From positions 2,174,501 to 2,238,500 of the forward strand of contig JBAIAA010000605.1 of the NCBI GenBank assembly GCA_037893245.1: 64,000 nucleotides of DNA. The letters are read 5' to 3'. The notes under the pieces were generated by a model. It ran no database searches. It was given only the letters and a program-made list of their open reading frames with translations, and was not told the DNA's origin. The translations under genes and the position numbers were made by a program. This DNA comes from Crossaster papposus (Eukaryota; Echinodermata; Asteroidea; Velatida; Solasteridae). Below are positions 1-32,331 of this stretch, one piece after another (the stretch's first letter is position 1; every line of letters begins with the position of its first letter).

Positions 1-86
1 AATTGTATGGCGATGGTGGATATGAATATGCAATTTAGAAACGTGACTGCATTACGTCAGTTGAGGGCGCACTGTCAGATGGCCGG

Positions 87-765: not shown

Positions 766-1617
766 CCGGCCTGTTGGGTTTTTTAATCAGGATTTTCACG
801 ATGATGTAAACTCAGAAATCCCGAAGTGGTTCGTATTGTTTCCCGTACGATTCCTGTTAAAAAATCACGAGACGCAGGCAGCATGCAAGCGAAGATGGAC
901 TGCCTATTGAGTATTATTAGTTCGGAAGTCGGGAAGTATTTTTACAAAGATTGTTTGTTATTCAGAGTCGATGGTATTCTACGAAGCCCCTAAAGGGACA
1001 CATGACGAATAAAAATCACCGTTACGAAATAATTTGAGTATTTTATTTCGTGCACTCAAAATAACTTATTTCGTGAGCTCGAAATGTTGTAGCATTAAGT
1101 TATGAAATTATATCGTTTAAAGCAGCAACAGTTCTCCAAATAGAATTGACCTGACAACGTTTTAGCTCTGCGAATGCTGTATATATTCCAAGAAAATAAC
1201 ATTTATAAGATTTCTACAGTGTAACCAACTACTTATGAATTTTTCAAAAAATGCGTCTCAGAGACGCATCTTTGGACTTCTTTTGATTATTTCTTCAAAA
1301 TGAAAGAATATCAGAAGGAATAATTTAATTATAGGGAGTTTTTAATTCTTGACATCATGTAAGCTGATAAACAATAATTTTGTTGGTTACTTTGTTGATA
1401 GTTGCAAACAGTATATACGTTCCCTTTTTGTTGTCGTGGCCACGAAATGACTTCGTGCGCTCCAAGAATATCTGTTCGTGAGCTCGAAATAATTTCGTGC
1501 GCTCAAAATACTTTCTAGCTGGTACTCTACTCGCTAAGTTTCGCGATTTGTTTGTCATATAATCCATTATGTTTTTAAGACGTCAACAAGGTGTATCTAT
1601 AAGTTACGATTTCACCC

Positions 1618-1653
1618 AGCTAGCAGGTGCCGCGCGAAGCGCGGCATCCTGCT
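1618..1653. repeat. Perfect-stem hairpin in unit copy A
   Basis: CTAGCAGG and GCCGCGC pair with GCGCGGC and CCTGCTAG around a GAA loop, giving a stem of about 15 bp. The same hairpin is in copy C at 17031-17063. Copy B lacks it together with about 90 flanking bases. Confidence 0.7.
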
Positions 1654-1674
1654 AGTACTATAAAAGATGACAAA

Positions 1675-1757
1675 TGCGCCATCTTGTCCCTGGGCGCCGC
1701 CATCTTGGAACGCAGGGCCGCGCCATCTTGGAACACAGGGCCGCGCCATCTTGGCGC
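1675..1757 (+). promoter_or_regulatory. Cluster of YY1-like GCCATCTTG motifs in unit A
   Basis: Four GCCATCTTG sites at about 20-bp spacing fit the CCAT-core consensus of the zinc-finger factor YY1. A GCCATGTTGG variant follows at 2942. Copies B (9585-9640) and C (17089-17160) keep the cluster. Regulatory use is an inference from motif density only. Confidence 0.35.
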
Positions 1758-2934
1758 ATTAGCCTCTGTCATGAAATGACGAAAATCAACCGAAGAGGGC
1801 GTTTTGCGGAAATTTGTCAATATGGCTGCCGAGCTCTCGCGTAAGACTAACGTAATTAGCTATACCATGGAGGAAAGACAACAGATAGTTAGTGAATTGC
1901 GGGAAATACTTAATAAAAAAATGGCCAATCATAAAACTAGATTTGCTTTCCTGCACTTGAAAAGACCCGCCGTGTATTTAGGCTCCTTAGAAAACCAGTT
2001 AGGCCCAAAATTTTAACATTTTTTTTTTCAGTGGCGTACACGTACTAAACTCAGTGAAGCTTTATTTGAATGCCAAATATTTGAATGCAATACAGTAAAC
2101 AAATTCTGGGGCCAATTCATACAAGCAATATTCTTTTTGCATTTTTTTTTTGACATCGAATATAAATTTGGGGCTTTACACACAAGCACTTTGTTTACAT
2201 AATTACTATATGGACGTTACTCCTCAACATTCCTGATCCTGCAATGTTAATTTAAAAACCAACCAGTTTTAAATACTGTTTCATTAAATGTAGACGCCTG
2301 TGAAATCTATCTTTCACCCTTTTATTGACTGAAACCTTACATGGGTCAAAAATGACATTACTCTTAAAAGAAGTTCTTAAATATAAACTTGAATTTTCCA
2401 AGAATTTTTCAATTGCGCCACGACTTAGGGAACACTCGGTCGATTGTGTGCCAAATTTCTGGACGCCACCGTTTTGGGGTTTTTTTCAGACTAAGTTTAC
2501 ACCTAAATTGTTAACAGAGGGTAAATAGCAAGCATTAATAACATTAACATGGTAAAGGTACAATGAATTTGCAGTTTGTCAACAAAGAAGTTTAGCAACA
2601 TCATGAGGAAAGTCGGCCCTACATTAACTGTTTATAAACAATGTAAACGTCGAAGTACAGCTATATCTACGCACGTACGTATAGCGCAGCACACTTTCAC
2701 CAACTGACCATTTTTTTAGTCGCTTTTTTTTTCTCTTTCGTAATTTTACGGTTTTGGGTGACATTCAGCCTTATGCCTACGGTTTATTCTTCCAAAATAG
2801 CCACAGCCTTTAGAGCTCCGTCGTAAGCCATTAAGTTCTGACATTGACGACACACGTGTTGCTGTTGTTAAGCGCCGCCATCTTGACAATGTTCCGCGCG
2901 TTGACCTTTTAGAAAGGTCATGACAGAGGCTAAT
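1758..2934. mobile_element. Non-autonomous DNA element with 17-bp perfect terminal inverted repeats
   Basis: The block starts ATTAGCCTCTGTCATGA and ends with the exact reverse complement. Copies B and C lack it at this point. It is 1177 bp with no transposase frame. Near the left end an open frame from 1825 (MAAELSRKTN, then an EERQQIVSELREIL helix-like stretch) follows a GCCATCTTG-like context, and GCCGCCATCTTG recurs near the right end. These could be captured host promoter and exon pieces, but I do not recognise the protein. No clear target duplication is visible because TTGGCGC repeats occur naturally at the site. Confidence 0.75.
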
Positions 2935-3360
2935 GGTTGGCGCCATGTTGGCTTTTGGTCGGGCGACTCGTCGCCGCGCGTGTGTGCCGCCGGCGTCGGT
3001 GCGGCGGGGTGCCGGATCGTTCGCGACGGGGAATCCCCCGGGGAATAAGATTTAAAAAAAAATCGTATTCGTCCGAAGAAGATTTAAAAGAAACGGACGT
3101 TACCGTGAACTATTGCGTTATTTTTGCATTGTCCTTGCCCGGAGTTCGGGCCGAAGCCTTCCCGAAATCGTACTACCGTAACTCGGTTGCCAAATTGTTG
3201 GCTGTTTGCGATTAAGCGGCGGCTACTGCGTTACGCGAAGCCTTCGCAAATTAATTGTATCCGCCTTGCTTGCGCGGTGGCCGAGTTGGTGCCGAGTTTG
3301 TTGTTCGCGATTGGGCGGCCCATCAAGGGGTTATTTGAGCTGGTGCCCCGATTTATACTT

Positions 3361-3711
3361 CCTTTCTTTAAATGGTTTATTCCTTCCGAAAAAAACCTAC
3401 ATCGAAAAATATACAATTATACAATTACACAATTACAAGTTTACAATTAAAAAGTTACACTTCTTTTCAATGCCTTAGTTTTCAATACGTTTTACTAACT
3501 TTTAAATCATGAACTCCTCACTTTTTGGAAAATTTGAAAAATCGATTTGTCTATTAAAACAAAATAATGGGAAAACTGTTATTACCCACCACCATAACTT
3601 GCTTGTTTGACAAGATGACTACCAATATGTATTCATTTGTTCAAATTAGTTGAAAATAAATGATGGACTGCAAAACAACCTTGGCTGAGGAAAACAGGCC
3701 CCGACACGGAC
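3361..3711 (-). other. LINE-1 3' untranslated region
   Basis: There is no coding frame. The plus-strand left end holds short ACAATTA-type repeats (about 3410-3450), consistent with a low-complexity LINE tail rather than plain poly(A). The rest is unremarkable AT-rich sequence. Confidence 0.5.
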
Positions 3712-6700
3712 CTATAGGTACTTTTTTAGACGGCACAGTAAATCATGACTATTAATATTTTTCTTATCAAATTTTGCTTCATTCCTTGCAAGCCAAATCG
3801 TTCGTCTAAAAATACTTAATTTGTGTGCCGTCTTAAGTTCCAGTGCTTTTGTTCTTGGTTTGGGAAACAAAGACAAAATTAGCGTATCCGTGTCGGGTGG
3901 GTACGCGCGCGTGTTGTTCAGACCGCCCAAGTAGTGACCAAGCCATTTGCCCACCGGCTTGACCACACCACACTCGACGAAAACATGTTCTAACGTCTCT
4001 AGTCGAGCGCAATGTGGACACAGACCGGGGTCATTTGACCCGAACCGTTTACGAAGTCTGTCACCGGTGGGCAGCACGTTGTGCACGACTGTGAAATTAA
4101 ACGAAGTTTGAGTATTAGACAATTTGCTACTACACAGCGTGCGTGACCATGCCGTAGTCCAGTCCTTACCAGGGCGGGAGCGTTGTACCCGCGGCACCAA
4201 TCCTTTGGTCTGAAGTATGGTTGCAAGGTGTTCTTTGAGTTTTATATGTCGCCAGTCTTGAACTAAACTTTGATGTTTACGGAAATTAAACAAAATGGAA
4301 CGATAAAAGTCCGGCTGTGTGTCACAGTGCGGCAGATTCTCACGCGCCAATGACGGGTCTGCACTACGTAGAGACAGACCGCACCAGTAGCGCGCGAGAA
4401 CCCGCCACTTGCCGGGTTTGCCTGATAAGATGCTGGCGACATGAACACCCTGCATGGCGGCAATCTTGCTGTCTATGTCCACCATCCCCATCCCTCCCTG
4501 GGATGGAGGGAGGTACATAGTGTCCCGGCTAACATACTCTGGTTTGTGCCCCCAAACAAAACCGAAAATCAACTTGTTGATCTTTTTAAGTTTCTTTTTG
4601 GGGGGCGGGGCGACCTCAGCTAAGAACCAAATTTTGGAAATCACAAAAGCATTTATTACTGAAACCCTCCCCTTAATCGAAAAATCACAGTCTTCCCATT
4701 CCCCAATACAGTTTTCCAGCTCTCTCAATTTATCTTCCCACATATCGTTTAGGATGTTCCCATAACCAAAAGAAATCCCAATGATTTTAGCTGAAGTCGC
4801 CCAAGAGATGTCAACCGGCCCATTTGGTCGATTTTTCCATCGACCAAGAAACACGCCACTCGTTTTCTGCTGGTTGAGCTTAGCGCCCGATGCGCGCTCG
4901 TATCTCTCGACCAGCTCAAAGCTGCGGACGATAGACCTATCGTCCGCTAGAATGAGGGTGGTATCATCAGCATACATCGAGACCCTAGCTTCGGTGCCCC
5001 CTGGTAATTTAACTCCCTTTATTTTGGGATCGGCCCTGATCGCACACCCGAGTGGCTCGAGGGCAAGGATGTAAAGTAACGACGAAAGCGGACAGCCTTG
5101 TCGAACCCCTCGGGATAGCGAGAAAGGCCGAGAAATATGCCCATTACAAATCACACTACTTTCAATGTCGGTGTACAGAATTTCCACCCATTTTCTAAAA
5201 TTTTCACCAAAGCCGAGGGTCCCAAGGATCTGCTGAAGATACCCCCAGTCAACTCTATCAAACGCTTTTTGCTGGTCGAGCGACACGAACACAGCACACA
5301 TATTTTTCTGATCTACGTAACTCTGAACGTTGCGAAGTAGGTGAGCATTGTCCGATATGCTTCTCCCCGCCACGGAGCAAGTCTGGTCTTCATTAACAAT
5401 GCTAGGCAAAATGGTCCGCAATCTGGTGGCGAGAATTTTAGCAATGATTTTGTAGTCGACGTTCAGTAGTGATATGGGCCGCCAATTACCCAACTCTTCA
5501 CGACTTCCTTTGTTCTTGTACAACAATGTAATCAGACCCGACCTTTGACTTTGACTAAGCCTACCTTCTTGAAAGACACAATTCACCATATCACAAATAT
5601 CTTGGCCCATATCACTAAAGAACGTCTTGTAAAACTCAGCGGGCAAGCCGTCCGAACCCGGGGACTTGCCCGCCGCCATATCGAACAAAGCCCGCCTCAC
5701 CTCATTAACAGTCACTGGCCCTTCGAGCAACAATTGCTCGTCAGGGCTCAGTGAACTGTCAATAGAACCCTTAAGAAAATCAATCTCTTTATCATCCGTG
5801 TCGGTTTTTGTATACAAATCGTTATAAAAATCCCTACAAATGTTGGTCATACGATTTGGTTCCGTGTGCAGTTGACCTGAACCATCACGGAGGCCTTGCA
5901 TGCGTTTTAAGTCCGAGTCGTGCTCCTTGGGCCGGAAAGTACTTTTTTCGGCAGAGGGCACTGGGTTGGGAACAGAAAAATGTGAATTATTCAGAGTGTT
6001 GTATTGGGTTTTTAAGTTATGCAAATCGGCTACGCACGCAGGATCTCCGTGATCAATTTTGTTTTGCAGGAGATTGATTTCTCTTAAGAGTTCCTTACGC
6101 TCAAAGCTACGTTTTCGTGCTTCGCCAGCAGAAAAAACAATCACTGCACTTTTTAGTTGGATTTTTCCCCTGTCCCACCACTCAACTAAATTATCAAAAT
6201 CCCCTTTTCGCGCACCCCAATCTTTCCATTCTGAACTAACGGCTTGTTTAAAATCATCCCTTCCCAGAAAAGAAGTATTAAGTTTCCAAAAACCCCGTCC
6301 AGCGTTTTGGATTTGGTTCGTGAAAACGACAGAAATTAAATCATCGAGGAGGCTGCTCTCTCTCACGATTTTCTGGATTTCCTTATTCCCCCGCGTAGTG
6401 TGTTGTGTAACCCCCCTTTTTGAATCAAGAACCAAATTTTCAATGCAATTAAAGTCGCCCCCCCAAATAACATGTCTCATACCCCGTGTGTGGTTACGTA
6501 ATTCACTTTCAAAGAACTTACGTCTGTCGGTCGGATCATTCGGACCATAAACGTTAACAATACGAATTTTTGTTTTTGTGTTGGGCATTGAAACCGTGAG
6601 AGAAAGCAGCCTACCTCTATTGTCACGCAAATAGTCCGTGGGGCACCACGAGTGGCGTGAAGACAGCAAAATGGCCGTCCCACAACTCGATGTTGTCCCA

Positions 6701-6936
6701 AAGGACCAGTACCCAACGCCGTCAAATTCACGGGCCCACGCCCTGGCTTCGGAAAAGCCAGAGACGTGAGTTTCCTGCAACAGCAGAACATCAATATTCT
6801 GACTGTTGCAGAAACCGAAGACCTGACGGCGCTTTGCCTGCTTCCTCAAACCACATACATTTAAAGACGCAACTTTAAAATTAACCATACAAAAGGCAAG
6901 CACAAAACAAGCAACATTGAAGCAGTCCATAAACAA
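3712..6936 (-). CDS. LINE-1 ORF2: endonuclease (C-terminally deleted) plus reverse transcriptase
   Basis: A 1074-residue open frame. The N-terminal APE-like endonuclease shows SLNVCGLR, the catalytic glutamate in LLQETH, VYGPND and GGDFNC. The C-terminal part of that domain, normally an RIDRFY-like and SDHD segment, is missing: the chain passes from LLDDLISV almost directly to GFWKLNTS. The reverse transcriptase is complete, with NWRPISLLNVDYKI, SLDQQKAFDRV, GVRQGCPLSS and the YADD catalytic motif. A CPHC...H...C zinc motif follows near the C-terminus, as in L1/Tx1 proteins. Likely start ATGs lie near the frame start (MFMDCF or MVNFKVASL). The intact frame suggests a young copy or an in-frame loss. 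It is probably unable to nick DNA on its own. Confidence 0.88.
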   Translation of the reverse strand: MFMDCFNVACFVLAFCMVNFKVASLNVCGLRKQAKRRQVFGFCNSQNIDVLLLQETHVSGFSEARAWAREFDGVGYWSFGTTSSCGTAILLSSRHSWCPTDYLRDNRGRLLSLTVSMPNTKTKIRIVNVYGPNDPTDRRKFFESELRNHTRGMRHVIWGGDFNCIENLVLDSKRGVTQHTTRGNKEIQKIVRESSLLDDLISVVFTNQIQNAGRGFWKLNTSFLGRDDFKQAVSSEWKDWGARKGDFDNLVEWWDRGKIQLKSAVIVFSAGEARKRSFERKELLREINLLQNKIDHGDPACVADLHNLKTQYNTLNNSHFSVPNPVPSAEKSTFRPKEHDSDLKRMQGLRDGSGQLHTEPNRMTNICRDFYNDLYTKTDTDDKEIDFLKGSIDSSLSPDEQLLLEGPVTVNEVRRALFDMAAGKSPGSDGLPAEFYKTFFSDMGQDICDMVNCVFQEGRLSQSQRSGLITLLYKNKGSREELGNWRPISLLNVDYKIIAKILATRLRTILPSIVNEDQTCSVAGRSISDNAHLLRNVQSYVDQKNMCAVFVSLDQQKAFDRVDWGYLQQILGTLGFGENFRKWVEILYTDIESSVICNGHISRPFSLSRGVRQGCPLSSLLYILALEPLGCAIRADPKIKGVKLPGGTEARVSMYADDTTLILADDRSIVRSFELVERYERASGAKLNQQKTSGVFLGRWKNRPNGPVDISWATSAKIIGISFGYGNILNDMWEDKLRELENCIGEWEDCDFSIKGRVSVINAFVISKIWFLAEVAPPPKKKLKKINKLIFGFVWGHKPEYVSRDTMYLPPSQGGMGMVDIDSKIAAMQGVHVASILSGKPGKWRVLARYWCGLSLRSADPSLARENLPHCDTQPDFYRSILFNFRKHQSLVQDWRHIKLKEHLATILQTKGLVPRVQRSRPGKDWTTAWSRTLCSSKLSNTQTSFNFTVVHNVLPTGDRLRKRFGSNDPGLCPHCARLETLEHVFVECGVVKPVGKWLGHYLGGLNNTRAYPPDTDTLILSLFPKPRTKALELKTAHKLSIFRRTIWLARNEAKFDKKNINSHDLLCRLKKYL

Positions 6937-6978
6937 TAGAGTTCAAGAAAATCAATCCAAAAGAAAACAACCTACAGT

Positions 6979-8673
6979 TCAGTTCTTTCTTATTTTCCCT
7001 CCTTTGATTTTCCATTTTCTGTCATATTCGTCTGGGGAGTGCCCCCGCTTACTACTTACGGCGCTGACCATGCTGGCGACAGAGAAAGTTGACGCGTTGG
7101 AGTCCGAGTCCGAGTCAGAGTCCGAGTCCGAACCCGAGCCCGAATCCGAGCCCGAATCCGAGCTCGAATCCAAGTCCGGGGCCCCAGGCTCGCCGTCGAA
7201 CACCTCGGCCGCTTCCCGGGCCAACTCGTCCTCCAGCCCGTCGAAGGGGTTGGATGTCACCACCGATTGTGCCCACTCCCGCGTGCGCAACTTAGACGCC
7301 TCCTCGGGGGTAAAGATCAATTTTTCCTCGTAGTCCACTGCCGGGGCGGCGGTTGCGGGGCTGGACGGGGCTGACCCAGTTTTCTGCCGTGTCGCGCCTT
7401 GACTTGGTGGCTTAATGGGGGGCGACTCGACGGCTTGACGGCGGGGTGACTTGGCGGCTTGACAGAGGGGAGACTTGGCGGCTTGACGGGGGGGTGATTT
7501 GGCGGCTTGACGGGGGGGTGACTTGGCGGCTTGACGGGGGGGTGACTTGGCGGCTTGACGGGGGGGTGACTTGGCGGCTTGACGGGGGGGTGACTTGGCG
7601 GCTTGACGGGGGGGTGACTTGGCGGCTTGACGTGGGGGTGACTTGGCGGCTTGACGTGGGGGTGACTTGGCGGCTTGACGTGGGGGTGACTTGGCGGATT
7701 GACGGGGGGATGGCTTGGCGGATTGACGGGGGGTGTTCAAAAGCACCGGGTTGGAGGGAGAGCTGCTCTTGCTGTGTGGGGCCTTGTTGGTAGCTGAACG
7801 GTGAATGCGTCCGCTACTCACCGCCTGGTCCCAGAAGCCAGGGGCTCTCTCGGCGGATGTCTTCTTGGCGGGTGTCTTCTCGGTTGTCTTTTGTGGCGGG
7901 TTTTCGGGGATGATGGCCGGGATGTCGTCTCTGGGGCTGTGTACTCCCTTGGTGGGCGGCGGGAACGCCGTGGTGGATGGAGGAGTGTGCTGGGCTCGTG
8001 CCTCGGTGGTCTCTTCGTTTTGCCGTGTCATGTTCTTCCATGAACGCGGGCAGGAGCGGGCAAAGTGGCCCTGTTCCCCGCATATCTTGCATAGCCGAGG
8101 CTCGGGGCAGTTGGCAGCTCGATGGCCGGTTCGTTCGCAGTTGAAGCATGGTATGTTGGGGCAATCCGCCGCGAAGTGGCCTTCTCCTCCGCAGGCTCGG
8201 CAGGTCTGAATTTGCCCTTCGTAGCTTACTTGCACCTGGTACCCGCCGATGCGTAAAAAACTGGGGATTGGTGTTTTCAGCTCCACCCGGTAGTGGCGTG
8301 TGCCGTTCTTCCATTCTTGCACAGTTTGCCAACGGCCCCGGCGGCTTGAGATGACTCGTCCGTAGTTAGACAGCTTAGCCGTAACAACCCCGTCGTCCAT
8401 TTCATCGGGCGCGTTGCGTACGTTGATGAAGGAGAAAGATCCACCTGCTGATGTGATCGTCACCGGCTTCTTGTTCACCTGCATCTCGCTCCGTATGAAT
8501 TTGTTGGCAGTGATGATGCTCGTAGTAGTAACAGCCCACTTGGTTGGACCCAGCTGCTGCACGCATTCCACTTCATTGCGTCCGGCCACTTTCTGAATGG
8601 CCTCGAAGATCTGTCCAGGAGCTGTCCCCTCGCAGAGGTGCAGAGTGACGGTTTTCTTCCGGTCCAGACTCAT
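6979..8673 (-). CDS. LINE-1 ORF1: zinc-knuckle nucleic-acid-binding protein
   Basis: A 564-residue frame starting MSLDRKKTV. Three CCHC knuckles follow an N-terminal RNA-binding-like region: CRACGGEGHFAADC, CFNCERTGHRAANC and CKICGEQGHFARSC, at roughly residues 158-208. The middle is a proline/basic array of about 12 octapeptides, SPPRQAAK, encoded by a 24-bp tandem repeat. The C-terminus is a Ser-Asp run and then a basic tail. This is the usual Tx1-type ORF1 arrangement (gag-like, CCHC). The start lies about 65 bp inside the element's 5' end, so the 5' UTR is very short or truncated. ORF2 follows after 42 bp. Confidence 0.88.
   Translation of the reverse strand: MSLDRKKTVTLHLCEGTAPGQIFEAIQKVAGRNEVECVQQLGPTKWAVTTTSIITANKFIRSEMQVNKKPVTITSAGGSFSFINVRNAPDEMDDGVVTAKLSNYGRVISSRRGRWQTVQEWKNGTRHYRVELKTPIPSFLRIGGYQVQVSYEGQIQTCRACGGEGHFAADCPNIPCFNCERTGHRAANCPEPRLCKICGEQGHFARSCPRSWKNMTRQNEETTEARAQHTPPSTTAFPPPTKGVHSPRDDIPAIIPENPPQKTTEKTPAKKTSAERAPGFWDQAVSSGRIHRSATNKAPHSKSSSPSNPVLLNTPRQSAKPSPRQSAKSPPRQAAKSPPRQAAKSPPRQAAKSPPRQAAKSPPRQAAKSPPRQAAKSPPRQAAKSPPRQAAKSPPRQAAKSPLCQAAKSPRRQAVESPPIKPPSQGATRQKTGSAPSSPATAAPAVDYEEKLIFTPEEASKLRTREWAQSVVTSNPFDGLEDELAREAAEVFDGEPGAPDLDSSSDSGSDSGSGSDSDSDSDSDSNASTFSVASMVSAVSSKRGHSPDEYDRKWKIKGGKIRKN
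7425..7737. repeat. 24-bp tandem repeat inside LINE-1 ORF1
   Basis: About 12-13 copies of GGCTTGACGGGGGGGTGACT-type 24-mers in frame, encoding (SPPRQAAK)n on the minus strand. Copies are nearly identical in the centre and diverge at the edges, which suggests recent expansion by slippage. Confidence 0.9.
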
Positions 8674-8738
8674 GGGTTACCCTTAAATTTGCAAGGGAAA
8701 CAAGGTGTAGAAGAACTTCCGACTTGACCACGGTGTTA

Positions 8739-10106
8739 CCTTGGTTTACTGCGGAGTAAACATAGTACCAGTTGAGCGCCGGCTTCGTTTTCGGGTTCGA
8801 ATTCGTGCGCGTCGACCACGTTTCAGTCACAGCTTGGGAACGTTAAAAAATGATTTATATCCTTTCGTGTTGCCTTTTGGGCAAATTTCTTTGCTTCCCA
8901 TTGTCGATACTTAAATATTACAACATTATCTGTCTCAAAACACTCCGAAACATATCGCTATTGCCTCAATTTCAACTTTGATCGTGCAAAAATGTCGCGA
9001 AATTGTATGGCGATGGTGGATATGAATATGCAATTTAGAAACGTGACTGCATTACGTCAGTTGAGGGCGCACTGTCAGATGGCCGGCCTGTTGGGTTTTT
9101 TAATCAGGATTTTTACGATGATGTAAACTCAGAAATCCCGAAGTGGTTCGTATTGTTTCCCGTACGATTCCTGTTAAAAAATCACGAGACGCAGGCAGCA
9201 TGCAAGCGAAGATGGACTGCCTATTGAGTATTATTAGTTTGGAAGTCGGGAAGTATTTTTAAAAAAATGGTTTTTATTCAGAGGCGATGGTATTCTACGG
9301 AGCCCCTAAAGGGACATAATTATGACGAATAAAAATAACCGTTACGAAATAATTTGAGTTTTTTTCGTGCACTCAAAATAACTTATTTCGTGAGCTCGAA
9401 ATGTTTTCGTAGCCACGAAATGACTTCGTGCGCTCCAACAAAATTTGTTCGTGAGCTCGAAATAATTTCGTGCGCTCGAAATACTTTCTAGCTGGTACTC
9501 TACTCGCTAAGTTTCTCGGTTTGTTTGTCATACAATCCATTATGTTTTTAAGACGTCAACAAGGTGTATCTATAAGATGGGCGCCGCCATCTTGGAACAC
9601 AGGGCCGCGCCATCTTGGCGCGTGGTTGGCGCCATGTTGGAAAGACGCGGCGCTTTTGGTCGGGCGACTCGTCGCCGCGCGTGTGTGCCGCCGGCGTCGG
9701 TGCGGCGGGGTGCCGGACCGTTCGCGACGGCGAATCCCCCGGGGAATAAGTTAAAAAAAAAAAAATCGTGGTGAGATTTAGGAGAAACGGACGTTACCGA
9801 TAAACGCGTAATCGCTTTTCGATTGCCTGTTGATGTCTGTGGGCCTTTTTGCGTGAACTATTGCGTTATTTTTGCATTGTCCTTGCCCGGAGTTCGGGCC
9901 GAAGCCTTCCCGAAATCGTACTACCGTAACTCGGTTGCCAAATTGTTGGCTGTTTGCGATTAAGCGGCGGCTACTGCGTTACGCGAAGCCTTCGCAAATT
10001 AATTGTATCCGCCTTGCTTGCGCGGTGGCCGAGTTGGTGCCGAGTTTGTTGTTCGCGATTGGGCGGCCCATCCCGTGTTATTTGAGCTGGTGCCCCGATT
10101 TATACT
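8739..10106 (+). repeat. Copy B of the ~1.4-kb tandem unit
   Basis: The most complete uninterrupted copy. It runs from GCGGAGTAAACATAG near 8750, through an ATG frame (8992-9126), the CGAAAT palindromes (9340-9480) and the GCCATCTTG cluster (9585-9640), to TGCCCCGATTTATACT at 10091-10106. It lacks the hairpin block of A and C. The last 16 bp are the left target duplication of LINE-2. Confidence 0.85.
8992..9126 (+). other. Small conserved ATG frame in unit B (44 residues), coding status unknown
   Basis: The frame starts MSRNCMAMVDMNMQF and recurs in copy C (16427-16561), in copy D (17864-18094, longer) and in A, whose ATG lies outside the window. In D it continues to 76 residues because short indels shift the frame after QMAGLL. 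No family is recognised. It may be a decayed coding segment of the unit. Confidence 0.3.
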
Positions 10107-10357
10107 AATTTTTAAAAGGTTTGGGATTCTCTAAAAGGAGATCCCAGGGTAGGGTAGTCACACTACACCTTAGTTCGTGAGGCTTCGAGCCTCCCTACCC
10201 TTTACTTAATATAACAATTAAACAGACACTAAACCAGGACGGTACAAACAGAGAGTGTAGCCACGCTACCCAAGCATTACCATGGTAGGGTACGACCCTA
10301 ACTCCCTGCTATGAAATACATATAAACATAATGCATACTATAAACTCCAAGACAACA
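10107..10357 (-). other. LINE-2 3' UTR with a nested stem-loop
   Basis: AGGGTAGGG at 10146-10154 pairs with CCCTACCCT at 10193-10201. Just inside lies a second hairpin, GAGGCTTCGAGCCTC (10179-10193). Stable 3' hairpins are how stringent LINEs let their reverse transcriptase recognise the RNA. That role here is an inference. Confidence 0.5.
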
Positions 10358-11896
10358 CTATATACGAACAACTAAACGACCACCAACGACTGTGCAAAGA
10401 ATACCCCGCACACACCAGGTAGCTTGAAAGTCTTGTTCGGACAGCCTAAAGAAGTCTGCCCGAATTCTGTCCCTGACCACACGCTTGATACGATGAAGTA
10501 CAACACCTGCGCTGACAGCGGACTTGTCGAACAAGGTCTCGCAACGCGATGACCAAACAAGCCACTTAACAACACAGATGATGTACCACACCAGAAAACA
10601 ATCTTTGCGGTTTTCAAAACCGACGGCATACAAAACACAAGGTGCGGTCAGGGAGATGTTCCTACCCAGAACTTTCCCACCCACATGTTCAGCCCAACCC
10701 CAAAGGAGCGAAAGAAAAGGACAGTCCCAAAATACATGGTTTATGGTCTCCGAGACGCCACAACCAATACGGGGGCACCTACCGGAGCCATATCCCCAAT
10801 TTAAAACCTTCGTGGCCGTTTTAACAGCTCGCCAAATGATACGCCAATTAAGATCTCTCAGGCGATGATCTAAGATTGCACGATGAGCAAATTTAAAAAC
10901 AAGATCCAAATCCTGGAAAACCAAAACCGGTTTTCTGACAAGGTCTTGGCCAAGAAAATAATAATACAGCTGGCGAGACGAGCCAGCTTCCCAGTCAAAG
11001 TTAGGGGCTATTTTAAATACGTGCAAGACTAGCTTGCAAAAATACGAATAAAAACTAGTTGGATCCCAAGCGTGGGGCCTGCTATTGGACCAAAGCCCAA
11101 CCGGCAGGACGCCACGCAAGGAAAACGTACACCAAAAAAGGGCAAAAAATCTCCAAGGCGGTCCATCAAGGTCCCAAACAGACCTAAACCCCCTGACAAA
11201 AAGACTGTCACACTTATGCCGAATATTTACAACGCCAAGGCCTCCCTGATCAATAGGTTGAAAAAGGACTGGGCGCGCAACTAAGTCGGGTTTACCCGAC
11301 CAAATAAAGCTAAAAATAGCCCTATCTATCACCTTCGCCACAGAGGCGGGAAGGGGATAAACTGGTGCTAAGAAATACAATGGGGCTAAAATGATAGAAT
11401 TAACTACCAAGGATTTAACAAGAAGAGAGAGCTTTCTCCCCTTCCACATGGCTATGCGGGTGATGAGGGCCGGGACACGATCTTTCCAATTCCGGACGCC
11501 CATGTCACCCCTACCAACTAAAACACCATTTATTTTAACCGGATCCCTGGTCCACTTAATAGGAACAAGGGAAGCCAAATCAAGGGGCCAGGACCCAAGA
11601 ATGAGACCCTGGGATTTAGACATGTTCAGGCGAGACCCGCTTGCTAGCTCAAAATGTTTAATAACTCCGAACAGCCGCACCAGCGACAAGCGATCCCGGA
11701 CAATGCAAGTGGTGTCGTCCGCGTACTGGACGACCTTGCACGACAAGCCACTGCTGCCAGGAACCACCAAACCGCCAATGCGACTGTCACGGATAACTGT
11801 AGCCGCAAAGGGCTCAATGAAAAGGACGTAGAGAAGAGGAGACAGGGGACATCCCTGCCTTACTCCCCTCGACAAACAAAAGGGATCGGACAGAAA
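10358..11896 (-). pseudogene. LINE-2 ORF2, 3' part: reverse transcriptase palm to C-terminus
   Basis: About 505 residues that continue the frame of the next entry after a one-base shift near 11890. It begins within the RT at SRGVRQGCPLSPLLY, carries the YADD catalytic motif, and ends with a thumb/connector and a C-terminal CPRIGCG...H...C zinc motif. There are no further stops in this part. Relative to LINE-1 the order of motifs is the same but sequence identity is low, so these are separate lineages. Confidence 0.85.
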
Positions 11897-13833
11897 ACTA
11901 AAATCTGACTAGAAATGTCAAAGTAAAGAATTTTAACCCAACGAAGGAAATTTGGGCCGAACCCAAATTGCCCCATTACTTTAAACAAAAAATTCCAATT
12001 GACCCTGTCGAAGGCCTTCTGTAGATCTAAAGATAAAACTAGACATGCAAGGTTCCGTCCATCCACATACGCCACCAGATCCCGAAGGAGTCTGATGTTG
12101 TCGTGGATGGACCTCCCCTTGACGCCGCACGTTTGAAAAGGACTGATAAGGTCCGGTAAGACCTTACCAAGGCGGTTACACAAGGCCTTCGACAGGATTT
12201 TGTAGTCTACATTCAACAAAGTGATTGGACGTTTATACCGGGGGTCTAAAGGGTCCCCAGGTTTGTCCAACAAAGTAATAATCCCCACACGCTGAGAATC
12301 GGCTAAAAGATTTAAACCAAGGGCACAACGAAAAACTCTCAGCAGGTCCGGGCCTATTAAATCCCAGAAACTGATGTAAAATTCCTTAGGAAGCCCGTCC
12401 CCACCGGGGGCCTTGCCGTTGGCCATTCCACGAAGGGCATAAGTCAACTCAGAAAGCTCTAAAGAACTTTCGAGTGTACAAAAAGAATCTGGGGAGACTC
12501 GGGATGACAACGAATCTAGAAAAGGGGACTGGAGATCACCCTGGACCGGCTCGTCGCTAAAAAGGTCTGAATAAAATAAACGATAGATAGAGGCTATCTC
12601 CGCCGAGGTCTCGACAACAACGCCGTCCGGACCACGAACGGAAGAAACAGATTTTTTCCTAGCTTGCTCCGATTCCAGTCGGAAGAAATATTTAGATGGC
12701 TTCTCGGCTTCATTGAGGTCACGGACTCTAGAACGAACCCGAGCCCCTTCGGCCTCGAAGTCATCCAACTTCTCCAGCTCTCCTTTAAAAAAATCATGTT
12801 TAACAAAAATGTCAGTAGATGATTTCCCGCTATTCAAATCATTAAGAACTGAATTAAGAGAGGACATCAGGTGCTCTCTCTTTTTACGCCGCTTCTTAGC
12901 GAGGCGACATGAAAAAGAAACAATAAATTGCTTACAACGAAGCTTGACTTCGTCCCACCAAAGGAGCTCGTTGCCAAACCCCCTGATGAGAGAACGCCAG
13001 CCCAAAAAAGCTTTTGTAAATTCCTCCCTGAACCCAGCAGCAGAAAGGGTGGAAATGTTACATTTCCAGTACCCCTTCCCAATGTCAGGTGAAGAGGGGA
13101 AGTTAAACTTAAGGATCACGGAGTCATGATCAGAAAAATAACATGAAGAATGTGAACAACCTTTTACATCCAATCGGTTGGACACGTAAAAACGGTCCAG
13201 ACGACTAGAAACTGAGTTGCTGGCATTACGCCATGTATAACAACGAGCATGAGGATGGAGACCCCTCCAACAATCATCTAAAGAAAACGTGGTCAATAAT
13301 TGACTCAACTCCACTGCACCAATATCACCAGATGTGAAAACAGAGCCACGGCGATCCATGGAAACATTTAAAACGCAATTAAAATCCCCACAGAGAATAA
13401 TGGGAAAGTTGCCTGTCAAATGAGAGACCAGATTAGAAAAGAAAAGACGACGGGCCCCAGGGTCCGTGGGTGCGTAAACTGTGCACAGCTTAACACTCTT
13501 CCCGGGACCCTGGAGGGTACCGCTAATAATACGACCTTCAGTGTCAACTGAAGGATCTAAAAAACGTAATGGACTACGGGGCGAAAAAAGAATGACGGTG
13601 CCGCAGGAGAAAGATGTGCCAAAACTGGCAAACATCCTCCCCCTCCATTCCGTCTGCCAAAAATCAAGATCAGAAAAAATAATATGACATTCCTGCAAGC
13701 AGGAAATATCATAAGACTTGCAAAACTGAAAAATACGCCGTCTTTTAATGGGGTCGCGCATACCGTTAACATTCAAAGAAATAACAGAAATCATTGTGAT
13801 TGAAAAGAGAAGAAGCCGAAAAAAGGCAACCAT
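11897..13833 (-). pseudogene. LINE-2 ORF2, 5' part: complete APE-like endonuclease and RT fingers
   Basis: The likely start is the ATG at 13833 or 13794; the latter gives MISVISLNVNG, the usual endonuclease start. Endonuclease motifs are complete: SLNVNGMRD, CLQECH, VYAPTDP, CGDFNC, SSRLDRFYVS and SDHD. A linker follows (SKYFFRLE) and then RT blocks KAPGGDGLP, KRPITLLNVDYKI and SLDLQKAFDRV. A one-base frameshift near 11890 separates the catalytic YADD half. The endonuclease type places the element with L1/Tx1-like LINEs. Confidence 0.87.
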
Positions 13834-13868
13834 AGGAGGGGTCAACTTAGAATAAGAACAAAAACAAA

Positions 13869-14219
13869 TCAATACTTAATTGAAGACACAAGGCCAGTCA
13901 CATCTGTGTCCAGGACATACCGGGTATGTTCCCGGACCAGATGGCCGACCCAAAACGACGGAGAAACGGCTGTGTCGTCACACACCGGACAGGGAATCAA
14001 CGCCCCACGATTGTGGGTTCCCTGCCGGTGAGTGACAAAATCCTCCCAGGTCGAGAACTCGGCATTGCAACCCGAAAGGTTGCAGCGAACTGCCAAGTCC
14101 TTAGAGCCTGGAAGGACAAGAAATTTGGTTTTGACCTCGGCCTGGCGGACCAGGTCTAACGAAGGACCCTGGAGAGCCTCATGAGGGGTCTCCGGGGTTA
14201 TCTCCTTCTTATTTTTCAC
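13869..14219 (-). pseudogene. LINE-2 Cys/His finger segment between ORF1 and ORF2
   Basis: A 116-residue open frame without any ATG; its first codon is GTG directly after an in-frame TAG. It has two C2H2-like fingers: CNLSGC...FVTHRQGTH and CPVC...FWVGHLVREH. The frame ends 35-75 bp before the plausible ORF2 start codons. Because the CR1-like tail lies immediately upstream, the simplest reading is that this is the displaced C-terminal part of ORF1. A separate small ORF that has lost its start is the alternative. Confidence 0.55.
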
Positions 14220-14249
14220 CTAAAAGGTTTTTTTATTTGGCGGGTTTTC

Positions 14250-14416
14250 GCCTATCTCGTAAATCAGAATTAGTATTAATGTTTAGAATTCCTGTAATAT
14301 CCTTGTATTTATAATATGTACTGTTATTTTATTTGATGATGTATGCAGGGCCCCAATGAAAACCAGTTTTAAACTGTTTGGGCACACCCTGGGTAAAGAA
14401 ATGGAATAAAATAAAT
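14250..14416 (+). mobile_element. CR1/L2-like LINE 3' tail nested in LINE-2
   Basis: On the plus strand, GCAGGGCCCCAATGAAAACC and AAACTGTTTGGGCACACC are followed by a GGGTAAAGAAATGGAATAAAATAAA-type end, closely matching 42708-42776 elsewhere in the window. Short 5'-truncated LINE tails of the CR1 group end in this way. The insertion cuts the ORF1 frame, whose last residues (IYFIPFLYPGCAQTV) are encoded by the tail. The left edge is uncertain. Confidence 0.65.
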
Positions 14417-15590
14417 CTCCACTGACGAAACAGAGTTCATGGAGTGCTCGGAATCTGAACAAGAATCTGGCTCACATTCCGCGCTAGCTACCCGTGGGCC
14501 CTTCTTAGAGGTGCCCTCGTCAGAAGAACCAGTATCCAAAATACGTTTCCGCCCACCCTTGCGGCGTTTGCGCCTAGGGGCACGGGACTGGCCGCCAGAG
14601 GATTTTCCCTGGCGGGCTACACGGTCATTAAAAGCAGAGATACATTCCGGCTCGCCACAAAACAATTCTAGCGTGCTGTAACCTTTTGTGCACATTGCAC
14701 AAGAGATTGTACGGGTCGACTTGTGACCTACTGGAAGATCGCAATTCATGCACAAATCGTTCGGGTTTGGAGGACCAACGGTCTCCCCACAAGTGTGGCA
14801 CTTAGCCGTCTGCTGGTCAGGCGGACCAGCTTCCGGCTTAGGTGTAGTCGCGGGCACCGATTCGGAAGTATCAGGAACCGGTTCCGCAGACCGATCCGGG
14901 GGAGCAGTCTGCTTCGCCATCAGATCCAGAGTGATGACCACGTCCTCCCGCACTACCTGAGCCCAGGAGCGACGGGGGACTACCTTGTTTGCAAAAGAAA
15001 CGGGGCATAATTTGAAACTGTGCCCCACATCCCCGCAAACAGTACAAACAACTCGGTTGGGGCACGAGGAAGCCATGTGCCCTAAACGGAGGCACTTAAA
15101 GCACTTTTGCTCTTTACAGCTATTAGCAAAATGACCATTTTTGCCACACTTGGCGCACGTTTTGGGTTGGCCTATATACGACACCCAGGCGTTCCTGTTC
15201 CCGATCCGGAAAACGGAAGGAATGTGCTGTTTTATTTTCATGCGGTATTGCCGGGTGCCGTTAAAAACAGAGGGTTCTCCAGCGTAGGTACAAAACCTAC
15301 TCTGGAGAACCTCACCGAACGCAGCAAGTTTGCCTCGGACGACGTTGTCTTCTATACCAATATTGATGTAGTGGATGGTCACAATGACCACCCCCTCATA
15401 AGACAAAACCTCACAGGACGGGATCAGATTGTGTCGGAATATATACTTTCGCCAATTCGGGCGTCTTGAACACAACATCAAAACGGTGGCCCGGTAAGGG
15501 CTGAACTGCAGACAGATGATCTTTGTCGGGTTTTACTTCGCCGGGGAACCGCAGTTCCACGGCGCATTCCTTATACTGTAGCGGTGGCAT
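14369..15590 (-). pseudogene. LINE-2 ORF1: CCHC knuckles plus PHD-like Cys/His cluster
   Basis: The natural start is the ATG at 15590 (MPPLQYKECAVELRFPG). A frameshift near 15425 moves reading into the 370-residue frame that ends at 14369. Three zinc knuckles are visible: CAKCGKNGHFANSC, CFKCLRLGHMASSC and CTVCGDVGHSFKLC. Further on, a C-x2-C-x13-C-x2-C-x5-H-x7-C-x2-C-x11-C-x4-C pattern (from CHTCGETV to CGEPEC) resembles a PHD finger. A basic patch (RKRRKGGRKR) and a Ser/Asp-rich tail follow. The last codons come from the nested CR1-like tail. Confidence 0.82.
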
Positions 15591-16158
15591 CTTGCCAGTC
15601 TACAGAAAAGGACAAAACACAAAAACACAAATACTCAAAAGTTGCTACTTGCAACAACAAAAACGAAACGATTAGGTTGGCGTAAAATACACCAACCTAC
15701 TACAGGGGCATCAATCTCCACGGGTTGCAATTGCCAACCCGCAAATAAAGATGCAACGAAGAAAAAAACAAAAAAACAAACAACTAGAGAGTTATATACA
15801 CGCTCAGTAAATACAGCGTACAAACTGTATACACAAATGTAAGGTATACAAAAATGTATACAAAACAAAATGGCGTGAAGGCAAGACTTGTTGCCTTCAC
15901 CCACACAAACACACGCATACAAATATAAAACCCGTAGCGATACACACACAACTGGTGTTATGTAACCGCCACGGGTAACTGAACAAAGAAAAGAAAAGCC
16001 GTACACTGCCAGGCGTGAACAAAAGAAGAGGCAAACAAAGGCCTATGCTGGCTAGTACAGAACTGCCTACCAACCTAGTCAATAAATGAAGACGAAGACA
16101 ATAGTACAAAATATGCAGCTGGAAAACGAGCTAAATCTCGACAACGCTTCGAAAAAAT
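15591..16158 (-). other. LINE-2 5' UTR
   Basis: There is no supported frame between the ORF1 start and the target duplication. The sequence is A-rich on the plus strand with CACACA and TATACA stretches. Internal promoter elements are expected here in a LINE, but none can be named from sequence. Confidence 0.6.
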
Positions 16159-16175
16159 TGCCCCGATTGATACTT

Positions 16176-17625
16176 GTTATTATATTGCGGAGTAAACATA
16201 GTACCAGTTGAGCGCCGGCTCCGTTTTCGGGTTCGAATTCGTGCGCGTCGACCACGTTTCAGTCACAGCCTGGGAACGTTAACAATTGATTTATTCCTTT
16301 CGTGTTGCCTTTTGGGCAAATTTCTTTGCTTCACATTGTCGATACTTAAATATTACAACATTATCTGTCTCAAAACACTCCGAAACATATCGCTATTGCC
16401 TCAATTTCAACTTTGATCGTGCAAAAATGTCGCGAAATTGTATGGCGATAGTGGATATGAATATGCAATTTAGAAACGTGACTGCATTACGTCAGTTGAG
16501 GGCGCACTGTCAGATGGCCGGCCTGTTGGGTTTTTTAATCAGGATTTTCACGATGATGTAAATCAGAAATCCCGAAGTGGTTCGTATTGTTTCCCGTACG
16601 ATTCCTGTTAAAAAATCACGAGACGCAGGCAGCATGCAAGCGAAGATCGACTGCCTATTGAGTATTATTAGTTCGGAAGTAGGGAAGTATTTTTACAAAG
16701 ATTGTTTGTTATTCAGAGTCGATGGTATTCTACGGAGCCCCTAAAGGGACATATGACGAATAAAAATCACCGTTACGAAATAATTTGAGTATTTTATTTT
16801 GTGCACTCAAAATAACTTATTTCGTGATCTCGAAATGTTTTCGTGGCCACGAAATGACTTCTTGCGCTCCAAGAATATCTGTTCGTGAGCTCGAAATAAT
16901 TTCGTGCGCTCGAAATACTTTCTAGCTGGTACTCTACTCGCTAAGTTTCGCGATTTGTTTGTCATACAATCCATTGTGTTTTTAAGACGTCAACAAGGTG
17001 TATCTATAAGTTACGATTTCACCCAGCTAGCAGGTGCCGCGCGAAGCGCGGCATCCTGCTAGTCTATACTATAAAAGATGAAAATGCGCCATCTTGTCCC
17101 TGGGCGCCGCCATCTTGGAACACAGGGCCGCGTCATCTTGGCGCGTGGTTGGCGCCATGTTGGAGAGACGCGGCGCTTTTGGTCGGGCGACTCGTCGCCG
17201 TGCGTGTGTGCCGCCGGCGTCGGTGCGGCGGGGTGCCGGATCGTTCTCGACGACGAATCCCCCGGGGAATAAGATTTTTAAAAAAATCGTATTCGTCCGT
17301 GGTGAGATTTGGGAGAAACAGACGTTACTGATAAACGTGCAGTCGCTTTTCTATTGCCTGTCGATGTGTGTGGGCCTTTTTGCGTAAACTATTGCATTAT
17401 TTTTGCATTGTTCGGGCCGAAGCCTTCCCGAAATCGTATACCGTAACTCGGTTGCCGAATTGTTGGCTGTTCGCGATTAAGCGGCAGCTACTGCGTTACA
17501 CGAAGCCTTCGCAAATTAATTGTATCCGCCTTGCTCGCTCGGTGGCCGAGTTGTTGCCGAGTTTGTTGTTCGCGATTGGGCGGCGCATCCCGTATTATTT
17601 GAGCTGGTGCCCCGCTTTATACTCC
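16176..17625 (+). repeat. Copy C of the ~1.4-kb tandem unit
   Basis: Complete copy from ATTGCGGAGTAAACATAG to CCCCGCTTTATACTCC. It carries the hairpin block (17031-17063) and the GCCATCTTG cluster. It joins copy D head-to-tail with no LINE, showing the natural unit junction TTTATACTCCCTTGGTTATT. Confidence 0.87.
16427..16561 (+). other. Small conserved ATG frame in unit C
   Basis: The same 44-residue frame as in unit B (MSRNCMAIVDMNMQF...), with one conservative change. Function unknown. Confidence 0.3.
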
Positions 17626-18386
17626 CTTGGTTATTGCGGTGGAAACATAGTACCAGTTGAGCGCCAGCTTCGTTTCCGTGCGCGTCGACCACTTTACGGT
17701 CACAGTTTTGGAACGTAAAAACAATGATTTAGTCCCTTCGTGTTGCCTTTTGGACAAATTTCTTTTTTCACATTGTAAATACTTTAATATTACAACATTA
17801 TCTATATAAAAACACTCTGAAACATATCGCTATTGCCTCAATTTCAACTTTGATCGTGCACAAATGTCGCGAAATTGTATGTCGATCGTGGATATGAATA
17901 TGCAATTTAGAAACGTGACTGCATTACGTCAGTTGAGGGCGCACTGTCAGATGGCCGGCCTGTTGTTTTTTAATCATGATTTTCACGATGATAAAATCAG
18001 AAATCCCGAAGTGGTTCGTATTGTTTACCGTACGATTTCTGTTAAAAATCATGAGACGCAGGCAGCATGCAAGCGAAGATGGACTGCCTATTGACATGGA
18101 GGAATAAGCCTTCTTATTCCTCCATGCTATTGAGTATTATTAGTTCGAAAGTCGGAAAGTATTTTTACAACAAGGATTGTTTTTATTCAGAGTCAACGGT
18201 ATTCTACGGAGCCCCTAAAGGGACATATGACGAATACAAATCACCGTTACGAAATAATTTGAGTTTTTTATTTCGTGCACTCAAAATAACTTATTTCGTG
18301 AGCTCGAAATGTTTTCGTGGTCACGAAATGACTTCGTGCGCTCCCAAAAATTTGTTCGTGAGCTCAAAATAATTTTATGCGCTCGA
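17626..18386 (+). repeat. Copy D of the tandem unit, truncated
   Basis: Begins head-to-tail after copy C and breaks off within the CGAAAT palindrome zone near 18386, where a further partial unit starts at GTCACAGTCACAG. It contains a 16-bp insert near 18098-18124 (GGAGGAATAAG...TATTCCTCC) that forms a hairpin. Confidence 0.8.
17864..18094 (+). other. Longest version of the unit ATG frame (76 residues)
   Basis: Starts MSRNCMSIVDMNMQF and continues through FFNHDFHDDKIRNPEVV to CKRRWTAY. Relative to copies B and C it differs by small indels that keep the frame open. This could be nearer to the ancestral coding state, or chance. No family recognised. Confidence 0.3.
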
Positions 18387-18690
18387 AAGTCACAGTCACA
18401 GTTTTGGAACGTAAAAACAATGATTTATTCCTTTCGTCTTCCTTTCACATTGTCAATACTTAAATATTACAACATTATCTCTCTAAAAACACTCCGAAAC
18501 ATATCGCTATTGCCTAAATTTTAACTTTGATCGTGCAAAAATGTCGCGAAATTGTTTGGCGATCGTGGATATGAATATTCAATTTAGAAACGTGACTGCA
18601 TTACGCGGATTGTTTTTATTTAGAGTCAATGGTATCCTACGGAGCCCCTCAAGGGACATATGACGAATACAAATCACAGTGACGAAATCA
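18387..18690 (+). repeat. Degenerate partial copy E of the tandem unit
   Basis: The segment from the GTCACAG region through the ATG frame start (18541) is present. It then jumps at GCATTACG to the later GGATTGTTTTTATT segment, so internal parts are deleted. Confidence 0.7.
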
Positions 18691-21240: not shown

Positions 21241-21487
21241 TCAACCATCGCCAGGCCTCGGTATCATAGGAGCATCCTAGCATTTTGTGTAGAGAGGACA
21301 GCAGCCGAAAGCAGTACGACTGGACTTTTAGTCGTTGAACAATCATTGCGGGTAGTTCAATCAGACAAGACAGAACGCTAGATTTTCTTGCCCGATTTCA
21401 ACTATACTTGGCGCACATTATACAAAAACAAATAAAACAAACTGAGATCGACGTTAAGTCATCTGATTTTAGCGAATCCTTTAAGTA

Positions 21488-32075: not shown

Positions 32076-32331
32076 TTATACCAAGTCCAACCCTCGCCAG
32101 GCCTCTGTATCACAGGAGCATCTAGCATTTTGTATAGAGAGGACAGCAGCCGAAAGCAGTACGGCTTGGCTTTTAGTCGTTGAACAACCATTGCGGGTAG
32201 TTCAATCAGAACCGACAAATCGCTAGATTTTCTTCCCGTGATTTCAACTACTTGGCGCACAATATACAAAAACAAATAAAACGAACTGAGATCGACGTTA
32301 AGTCATCTGATTTTAGCGAACTCTTTAAGTA

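What the first reader, a model, noticed from the sequence alone, without database searches (positions are those of the whole stretch)
3340..16190. Two unrelated Tx1/L1-like LINEs inserted at the same point of a tandem repeat unit
LINE-1 and LINE-2 differ throughout their ORFs, yet both begin immediately after ...GTGCCCCGATTTATACT and both lie antisense to the unit. LINE-2 duplicates that 16-bp site. Two independent insertions at one site are unlikely by chance. Target specificity is established for some Tx1-clade LINEs that use multicopy RNA genes or transposons. A ~1.4-kb satellite-like unit as the target would be a new case.
Basis: partly seen in the sequence, partly recalled or inferred. 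Interest (0 to 1): 0.85.

Follow-up and report, generated by a model that had tools for sequence, protein, structure and literature searches.

The report
LINEs that switched onto a Helitron repeat
Two distantly related jumping genes of an animal genome insert within about four bases of each other in a common repeat that looks like a Helitron transposon, and one of them seems to have moved there very recently from another target, the U1 small nuclear RNA gene.

Summary
Repeat copies are called R0-R3, to avoid confusion with snRNAs U1 and U2. The repeat is Helitron-like, ~1.45 kb (also ~1.88 kb), solo or head-to-tail; 555 places match its empty site at <=1 mismatch. Of 30 close LINE-1 copies with a readable 3' flank, 15 sit in the repeat, 14 in U1 snRNA genes at one nucleotide, 1 behind another LINE-1. 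Of 7 close LINE-2 copies, 6 sit at the repeat site and 1 behind another element in a remnant of it. Repeat-site LINE-1 copies are one shallow group (99.3% alike), separated with ultrafast bootstrap 100 from more diverse U1-gene copies (96.9%), and carry an 18-nt U1-like 5' end: a very recent U1-to-repeat switch is the best reading. LINE-2's 3' tail (~83%) is shared with an element sited mostly in U2 snRNA genes (19 of 23 fetched). Corrections: the LINEs are homologous (31-36% aa), not unrelated; LINE-1's junction lies ~4 nt downstream of LINE-2's; the window's 'duplicated site' recurs with the same variants at three loci. Tx1 membership was not testable.

The parts
1..3359 (+). Repeat copy R0 (starts before the window; not alignable to the other copies at about 87-765, 1089-1428 and 1732-2950, taken as inserts)
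   Evidence: blastn of the window against itself
3343..3363 (+). Target sequence left of LINE-1: GTGCCCCGATTTATACT plus TCCT, which most likely belongs to the target
   Evidence: empty sites read GATTTATACTTCCTTGG
3364..8738 (-). LINE-1 (3' end at 3364; last two bases 'TA' at 8737-8738 of unclear origin)
3712..6942 (-). LINE-1 ORF2: APE-type endonuclease, reverse transcriptase, zf-RVT (27.3 bits, just under the cut-off of 27.5); endonuclease lacks ~51 residues near 6340-6345 that other copies have
   Evidence: Pfam; alignment to LINE-2; 153 extra bases in L069; other copies
6979..8676 (-). LINE-1 ORF1 with three CCHC matches and a 24-bp tandem repeat
8719..8736 (-). U1 snRNA-like 5' end of LINE-1, 16 of 18 matches to nt 21-38 of the closest U1 variants of this genome
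8739..10106 (+). Repeat copy R1
10107..16157 (-). LINE-2
10358..13875 (-). LINE-2 ORF2 in two overlapping frames (10358-11908 and 11860-13875): endonuclease, reverse transcriptase, zf-RVT
14369..15532 (-). LINE-2 ORF1, CCHC match
16158..16174 (+). Second copy of the target site at LINE-2's 5' end (TTGCCCCGATTGATACT)
16175..17623 (+). Repeat copy R2
17027..17077 (+). Helitron-like head-to-tail junction: CTAG-ended hairpin then TCTATACTATAAAAG
17607..17640 (+). Uninterrupted (empty) target site between R2 and R3, variant ATACT|CCCTTGG
17624..18390 (+). Repeat copy R3 (partial, then degenerate repeats to about 19180)

Best explanation
Both LINEs are site-specific APE-type non-LTR retrotransposons of the L1/Tx1 group that use a ~20-bp stretch of a Helitron-like repeat (CCCCGMTTTATACTTCCTTGG) as target. 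Their endonuclease nicks the plus strand after TTTATACT (LINE-2) or after TTTATACTTCC(T) (LINE-1), and the freed 3' end primes reverse transcription of the LINE RNA. LINE-1 descends from a U1 snRNA gene-specific element and moved to the repeat once, recently: its repeat-site copies are one shallow group and still carry U1-like nt 21-38 at their 5' end. LINE-2 shares its 3' tail with an element sited mostly in U2 snRNA genes, whose site also ends ATACT. Shown: positions, copy flanks, grouping of copies, U1-like 5' end. Inferred: enzymology, direction of the switch (midpoint root plus the U1-like end), 5' joining with help of target-derived RNA, and the link of LINE-2 to U2 specificity.
For: LINE-1: of 48 matches to its 3' end (52 candidates, 40 scored), the 30 close copies (86% or more) with a readable 3' flank are 15 repeat, 14 U1 gene, 1 stacked. 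U1 recognised by Rfam in 2 of the 3 such loci given (L028, L035, not L015), the rest by flank similarity and against intact U1 genes of the genome. Grouping: 14 repeat or stacked against 9 U1 copies, ultrafast bootstrap 100; 99.34% within the first, 96.86% within the second. The same LINE 5' end in 7 of 7 repeat-site or stacked ends read (window, L085-L089 and the element before L020), 5 of them followed by TACCTTGG. The 18-mer at that end is the single best of 5359 LINE-1 18-mers against 11 distinct U1 sequences and aligns at nt 21-38, directly before the U1 insertion point. LINE-2: 6 of 7 at the repeat site, 1 behind a LINE-3 in a 15-nt site remnant. LINE-3: 19 of 23 fetched loci in U2 genes, 1 at the repeat site (Rfam U2 in L046). 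Endonuclease and RT domains.
Against: Eight distant relatives of LINE-1's tail (77-78%) sit elsewhere: 7 at one shared flank, 1 alone. Three of 23 LINE-3 loci are at other sites. Only weak sequence similarity joins the U1 and repeat sites (CC before the nick, by eye). No enzymology. The root of the LINE-1 tree is the midpoint, without an outgroup. Two U1 pairs (L035/L036, L031/L037) are 99% or more alike in 1.5-kb flanks, so independent U1 loci may be 12 of 14. The 450 nt next to repeat-site LINE-1 copies are 95.7-99.3% alike (mean 97.4, 105 pairs, gaps not counted), so a few pairs cannot be told from carried copies by that measure. LINE-2's independent insertions may be fewer than 7, and in L092 its 5' junction was not found. 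LINE-3 in U2 genes may have been multiplied with U2 arrays.
Confidence: 0.83

Rival explanations
1. One insertion of each LINE happened in a repeat copy, and Helitron transposition or array amplification then carried the LINEs to other loci.
For: The repeat is dispersed and tandem. The window's LINE-2, L090 and L091 share a variant site copy at the 5' end. Near flanks of some LINE-1 pairs reach 99.3% over 450 nt, about as alike as the LINE bodies.
Against: Mean near-flank identity is 97.4% against 99.34% for LINE-1 bodies; over ~1.5 kb the listed repeat-site LINE-1 pairs (those among the 45 best) reach at most 96.9% with gaps counted; LINE-2 near flanks are 93.8-97.5% in 10 pairs of 5 copies against bodies of 98.1-99.4% for the same five. 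LINE-1 also sits in U1 genes. Stacked insertions (L020, L088, L045) and repeat-site copies that end early (L019, L029) need separate events.
Confidence: 0.09
2. The elements are L1-like LINEs with a broad preference for T-rich/TATA-like sites, and the repeat is hit often only because it is abundant.
For: The site contains TTTATACT, and LINE-3 has three other sites with ACT before the junction.
Against: All 30 close LINE-1 copies read are at exact nucleotides of two targets or stacked; the repeat is ~1.45 kb and only this point of it is used.
Confidence: 0.03
3. The switch ran the other way: LINE-1 was a repeat-specific element that later colonised U1 genes.
For: The tree has no outgroup.
Against: U1-gene copies are more diverse (96.86% against 99.34%), and repeat copies carry a U1-like 5' end.
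Confidence: 0.07

Closest known systems
Keno (APE-type, U2 snRNA gene-specific; passages of PMC4640811 seen)
   Same: APE endonuclease LINE with an snRNA-gene target; LINE-3 sits in U2 genes after AGATACT
   Different: LINE-2 uses a Helitron-like repeat and LINE-1 uses U1 genes and that repeat; the U2-sited LINE-3 copy read in full has no ORF2; no Keno sequence was at hand
Tx1L of Xenopus (target: a DNA transposon; recalled)
   Same: LINE whose target lies inside another transposon
   Different: target here is Helitron-like; no sequence comparison was possible
Utopia and YURE (PMC4640811, passages seen)
   Same: snRNA-gene target; YURE occasionally enters a U2-derived satellite; tandem insertions reported
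   Different: restriction-like endonuclease, not APE; the repeat here shows no snRNA match at Rfam's thresholds
Dada-U1 (DNA transposon; passages of PMC4640811, PMC3706591, PMC8869645 seen)
   Same: targets U1 snRNA genes
   Different: DDE DNA transposon, not a LINE
R2/R1 (recalled)
   Same: target-derived 5' RNA thought to help 5' junctions
   Different: rDNA targets
HAL1 (recalled)
   Same: ORF1-only LINE derivative like LINE-3
   Different: HAL1 is mammalian and not site-specific

Membership tests
APE-type non-LTR retrotransposon (LINE) | APE-like endonuclease plus RT in ORF2, ORF1 upstream | tested here: met
   Exo_endo_phos, RVT_1 and zf-CCHC in both, zf-RVT over its cut-off in LINE-2 and just under in LINE-1; LINE-1 ORF2 and the first part of LINE-2 ORF2 match human L1 ORF2p best in the PDB
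Tx1 clade | RT phylogeny groups with Tx1 references | not testable with these tools
   No reference sequences at hand; scans of viral and genome contigs found no relative
Tx1 clade | Sequence-specific insertion in multicopy genes or transposons | tested here: met
Keno (U2-specific) | Insertion in the U2 snRNA gene | tested here: not met
   No close LINE-1 or LINE-2 copy read is in U2; only LINE-3 is, 19 of 23 loci
Helitron (the repeat) | 5'-TC start and hairpin plus CTRR 3' end; insertion between A and T (consensus recalled) | tested here: met
   18 distinct hairpin ends (17 CTAG, 1 CTAC): 16 followed by the 5' start or a variant of it, the 2 others by T; 4 of 5 non-tandem starts preceded by A, the fifth by G
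Helitron (the repeat) | Rep/helicase protein (autonomous) or an autonomous partner | not tested
   No ORF of 200 aa or more lies in R1 or R2; no partner was sought

The most novel reading that the evidence does not exclude
A natural retargeting of a site-specific LINE from U1 snRNA genes to a Helitron repeat, so recent that few changes separate the two groups. In the endonuclease stretch read, the only amino-acid difference that held up is residue 34 (Asn in 4 of 4 U1-gene copies, Lys in 5 of 5 repeat copies), a few residues after the conserved LNV motif; residues 621 and 929 also differ (14 against 9 copies), and ORF1 was not compared. The change at 34, alone or with a few others, might have redirected the endonuclease.
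Probability: 0.25. Interest if true: 0.92.

Novelty: new variant of a known kind. Interest (0 to 1): 0.78.

Why it matters
How site-specific LINEs change target is, to my knowledge, an open question because families known to differ in target are usually old and divergent. Here two groups of the same element, 95-99% identical, use two different targets in one genome, and a second lineage related in its tail to a U2-gene element has come to within ~4 nt of the same point. That makes the determinants directly testable. A U1 snRNA gene-specific LINE and a Helitron target were not seen in the listings of the searches made, which cover only an open-access library.

Tried and rejected
Considered and rejected or held unlikely: carriage of the LINEs by duplication (flank against body identity; partly open for single pairs); an RNA gene inside the repeat (Rfam at gathering threshold and at E<=5, ARAGORN; only sub-threshold, implausible hits); LINE-2 at a non-repeat site (L045 first looked so, but its left neighbour is a LINE-3 5' end followed by a site remnant). 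Apparent fixed endonuclease differences at 6502, 6408, 6402 and 6343 were dropped: a direct pattern check showed no difference at 6502, the frames printed disagree with 6408 and 6402 (the pattern check for these gave nothing), and 6343 lies at the window copy's deletion. Relatives outside the genome: none in phages or in viral and genome contigs; one weak RT match in plasmids (Alicyclobacillus). The 3' ends as folded RNA: only LINE-2's is clearly more structured than shuffles (z -2.93 against -0.75). Not obtained: whole-genome junction counts for LINE-1 by pattern, an autonomous U2-sited relative (not sought), the organism's name.
Full report
What is in the window. Two minus-strand LINEs lie between copies of a ~1.45-kb repeat; I call the copies R0-R3. 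LINE-1 has ORF1 at 6979-8676 and ORF2 at 3712-6942. LINE-2 has ORF1 at 14369-15532 and ORF2 in two overlapping frames, 11860-13875 and 10358-11908. Both have CCHC matches in ORF1 and an APE-type endonuclease and RT in ORF2; zf-RVT is over its cut-off in LINE-2 and just under it in LINE-1. LINE-1 ORF2 and the first part of LINE-2 ORF2 match human L1 ORF2 protein best among solved structures. Between themselves they are 34% (endonuclease to RT), 31% (RT to C end) and 36% (ORF1) identical in protein and show no significant DNA similarity. They are therefore distant members of one group, not unrelated elements. The LINE-1 copy of the window lacks ~51 residues of its endonuclease that other copies have, so this copy is probably dead.

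The site. Of the first 100 listed, on 36 contigs, 36 lie within 2.5 kb of the previous one, mostly at ~1.45 or ~1.88 kb; 58 have such a neighbour, and 3 are directly followed by LINE-1. Empty sites read CCCCGMTTTATACT|TCCTTGG in 6 of 6 distinct contexts of the loci then held, and 555 places match that at <=1 mismatch; the window's own empty junction is a CCCTTGG variant. TCC(TT) at LINE-1's left end is thus most likely target, and LINE-1's junction is ~4 nt downstream of LINE-2's.

The repeat. It ends in a hairpin with a perfect 7-bp core plus CTAG and starts TCTATACTATAAAAG. Of 18 distinct ends found in held sequence, 16 run straight into the start or a variant of it, and 2 run into other DNA beginning with T. 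Of 5 starts not in tandem, 4 are preceded by A and 1 by G. These are Helitron features (consensus recalled). PMC7492417 (passages seen) says that whole Helitrons can be repeated in tandem. No RNA gene was found in the repeat.

LINE-1 copies. Its last 401 bases match 48 places (52 candidates, 40 scored). These rows are: 29 loci with an intact 3' end (L009-L037), two pieces of one further copy on C3, one row lacking the 3' end (C119, not examined), two rows of one divergent copy on C692, and 14 rows of 7 divergent copies. Of the 30 close copies, 15 end in the repeat at TTTATACT-TCC(T), 14 end in U1 snRNA genes at one nucleotide (GGGAGAACCG, plus strand), and 1 (L020) stands directly behind another LINE-1. 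Rfam recognised U1 in L028 and L035 but not in L015; the other U1 loci rest on flank similarity to L028 and on intact U1 genes of the genome. The 8 divergent relatives (77-78%) lie elsewhere: 7 share one other flank and 1 is alone.

Independence and direction. A tree of 23 copies (7 truncated or partial ones of the 30 left out) separates 14 repeat or stacked copies from 9 U1-gene copies with ultrafast bootstrap 100. Mean identity is 99.34% within the first (91 pairs), 96.86% within the second (36 pairs), 97.27% between. The flanks speak mostly for separate insertions. Over ~1.5 kb the listed repeat-site LINE-1 pairs (those among the 45 best) reach at most 96.9% with gaps counted. Over the nearest 450 nt all 105 pairs give 95.7-99.3%, mean 97.4, gaps not counted, less than the bodies on average but not for every pair. 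Stacked copies (L020, L088) and early-ending ones (L019, L029) add separate events. Two U1 pairs have near-identical 1.5-kb flanks (L035/L036, L031/L037) and may be duplicates or alleles. Repeat-site LINE-1 copies begin ACACCGTGGTCAAGTCGG. This is the best match of all 5359 LINE-1 18-mers to 11 distinct U1 sequences (16 of 18 for the closest variants, 11-15 for the others), aligned with U1 nt 21-38, just before the U1 insertion point. The two U1-gene copies read through at the 5' end (L069, L072) have the same bases there, although intact genes with the same downstream variant read ACACCGTGATCAAGATGG or close to it, so the stretch seems to travel with the LINE. The same LINE 5' end was seen in 7 of 7 repeat-site or stacked ends read; in 5 of them (window, L085, L086, L087, L089) it continues TACCTTGG, in L088 and before L020 another LINE-1-like element follows. 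A U1-gene ancestor that switched to the repeat once is the simplest reading; the root is the midpoint, so direction is inferred.

Endonuclease. In the stretch read from 5 repeat and 4 U1-gene copies, residue 34 is Lys in all 5 and Asn in all 4; two silent differences also hold (one in 5 against 3 readable copies). Other rows of the automatic list were artefacts or unreliable and were dropped. In the 3' 1.9 kb, 5 sites are fixed between the groups, two of them changing residues 621 and 929.

LINE-2 copies. The search scored 40 of 345 candidates. Seven are 98% or more identical over the query: six at the repeat site and one (L045) directly behind a LINE-3 5' end followed by ACCCCGCTTTATACT. Of four stretches fetched for 5' ends, three show the junction. 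At C124 (L044/L093) both junctions carry the locus-specific variant CCCCACTTTATACT, a ~14-bp duplication. In L090 and L091, as in the window, the right-hand copy has the same variant TTGCCCCGATTGATACTTG although right flanks are 95-98% alike, so it may be part of the LINE's 5' end. In the fourth (L092) similarity stops ~19 nt before the window copy's 5' end, and what follows was not identified. LINE-2 3' bodies are 97.7-99.4% alike over all seven and near flanks of five copies 93.8-97.5%; fewer than seven independent events remain possible.

LINE-3. The other 33 matches share only ~240-270 bases of LINE-2's 3' tail at 80-84%. Of 23 fetched, 19 sit in a U2 snRNA gene (Rfam hit in L046; the rest by a 170-nt flank at least 99.4% identical), 1 at the repeat site (L063), 3 elsewhere. 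One read in full on C1342 is ~2.5 kb with a single 579-residue ORF like LINE-2 ORF1 and no ORF2. U2 and repeat sites share ATACT before the nick, which may explain why a U2-type enzyme accepts the repeat; this is inference.

Known context. [quoted passage not shown] PMC3706591 (passages) lists Mutsu, Keno and Dewa. No LINE specific for U1 genes or for Helitrons was seen in the listings of searches; the library is open-access only.

Verdict. The repeat is a real, specific target for both LINEs.

Noticed in passing
L046 + L071 (C1342), L046-L068: A LINE derivative (LINE-3; 345 first-look candidates for the shared tail) sits mostly in U2 snRNA genes; the copy read in full has only ORF1, with CCHC knuckles and later paired Cys/His motifs (by eye). 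Its ORF2 donor was not sought.
   Followed up: partly
L071 (C1342:127600-131000) and L046 230-275: A histone H2A-like reading frame (by eye) and a histone 3' stem-loop (Rfam) lie near the occupied U2 gene, so U2 and histone genes seem linked here.
   Followed up: no
C319 and C579: U1 snRNA genes in tandem arrays with spacing of about 1372 bp.
   Followed up: no
L094-L100: Seven relatives of LINE-1's tail (77-78%) share one other flank that reads like the start of a coding frame (MSSSDDPYIFLSRN...) of a further repeat; perhaps a third target or a composite element.
   Followed up: no
L020/L024 (C769), L088 (C877), L045 (C752): Stacked insertions: LINE behind LINE at the same target point.
   Followed up: partly
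window 7400-7733: 24-bp in-frame tandem repeat in LINE-1 ORF1 (14 copies), giving several overlapping matches in L069 and L072.
   Followed up: no
window 21425-22534, 32269-33309, 58592-59631: Three similar copies of a fibrinogen-like gene region (name from reading the translation, not tested).
   Followed up: no
window 41283-42335 and 43671-46112: Two long minus-strand frames, the first resembling a Penelope-like GIY-YIG end (recalled likeness, not tested).
   Followed up: no
window 87-765: Insert in R0 with inverted, C-rich repetitive ends, MITE-like.
   Followed up: no
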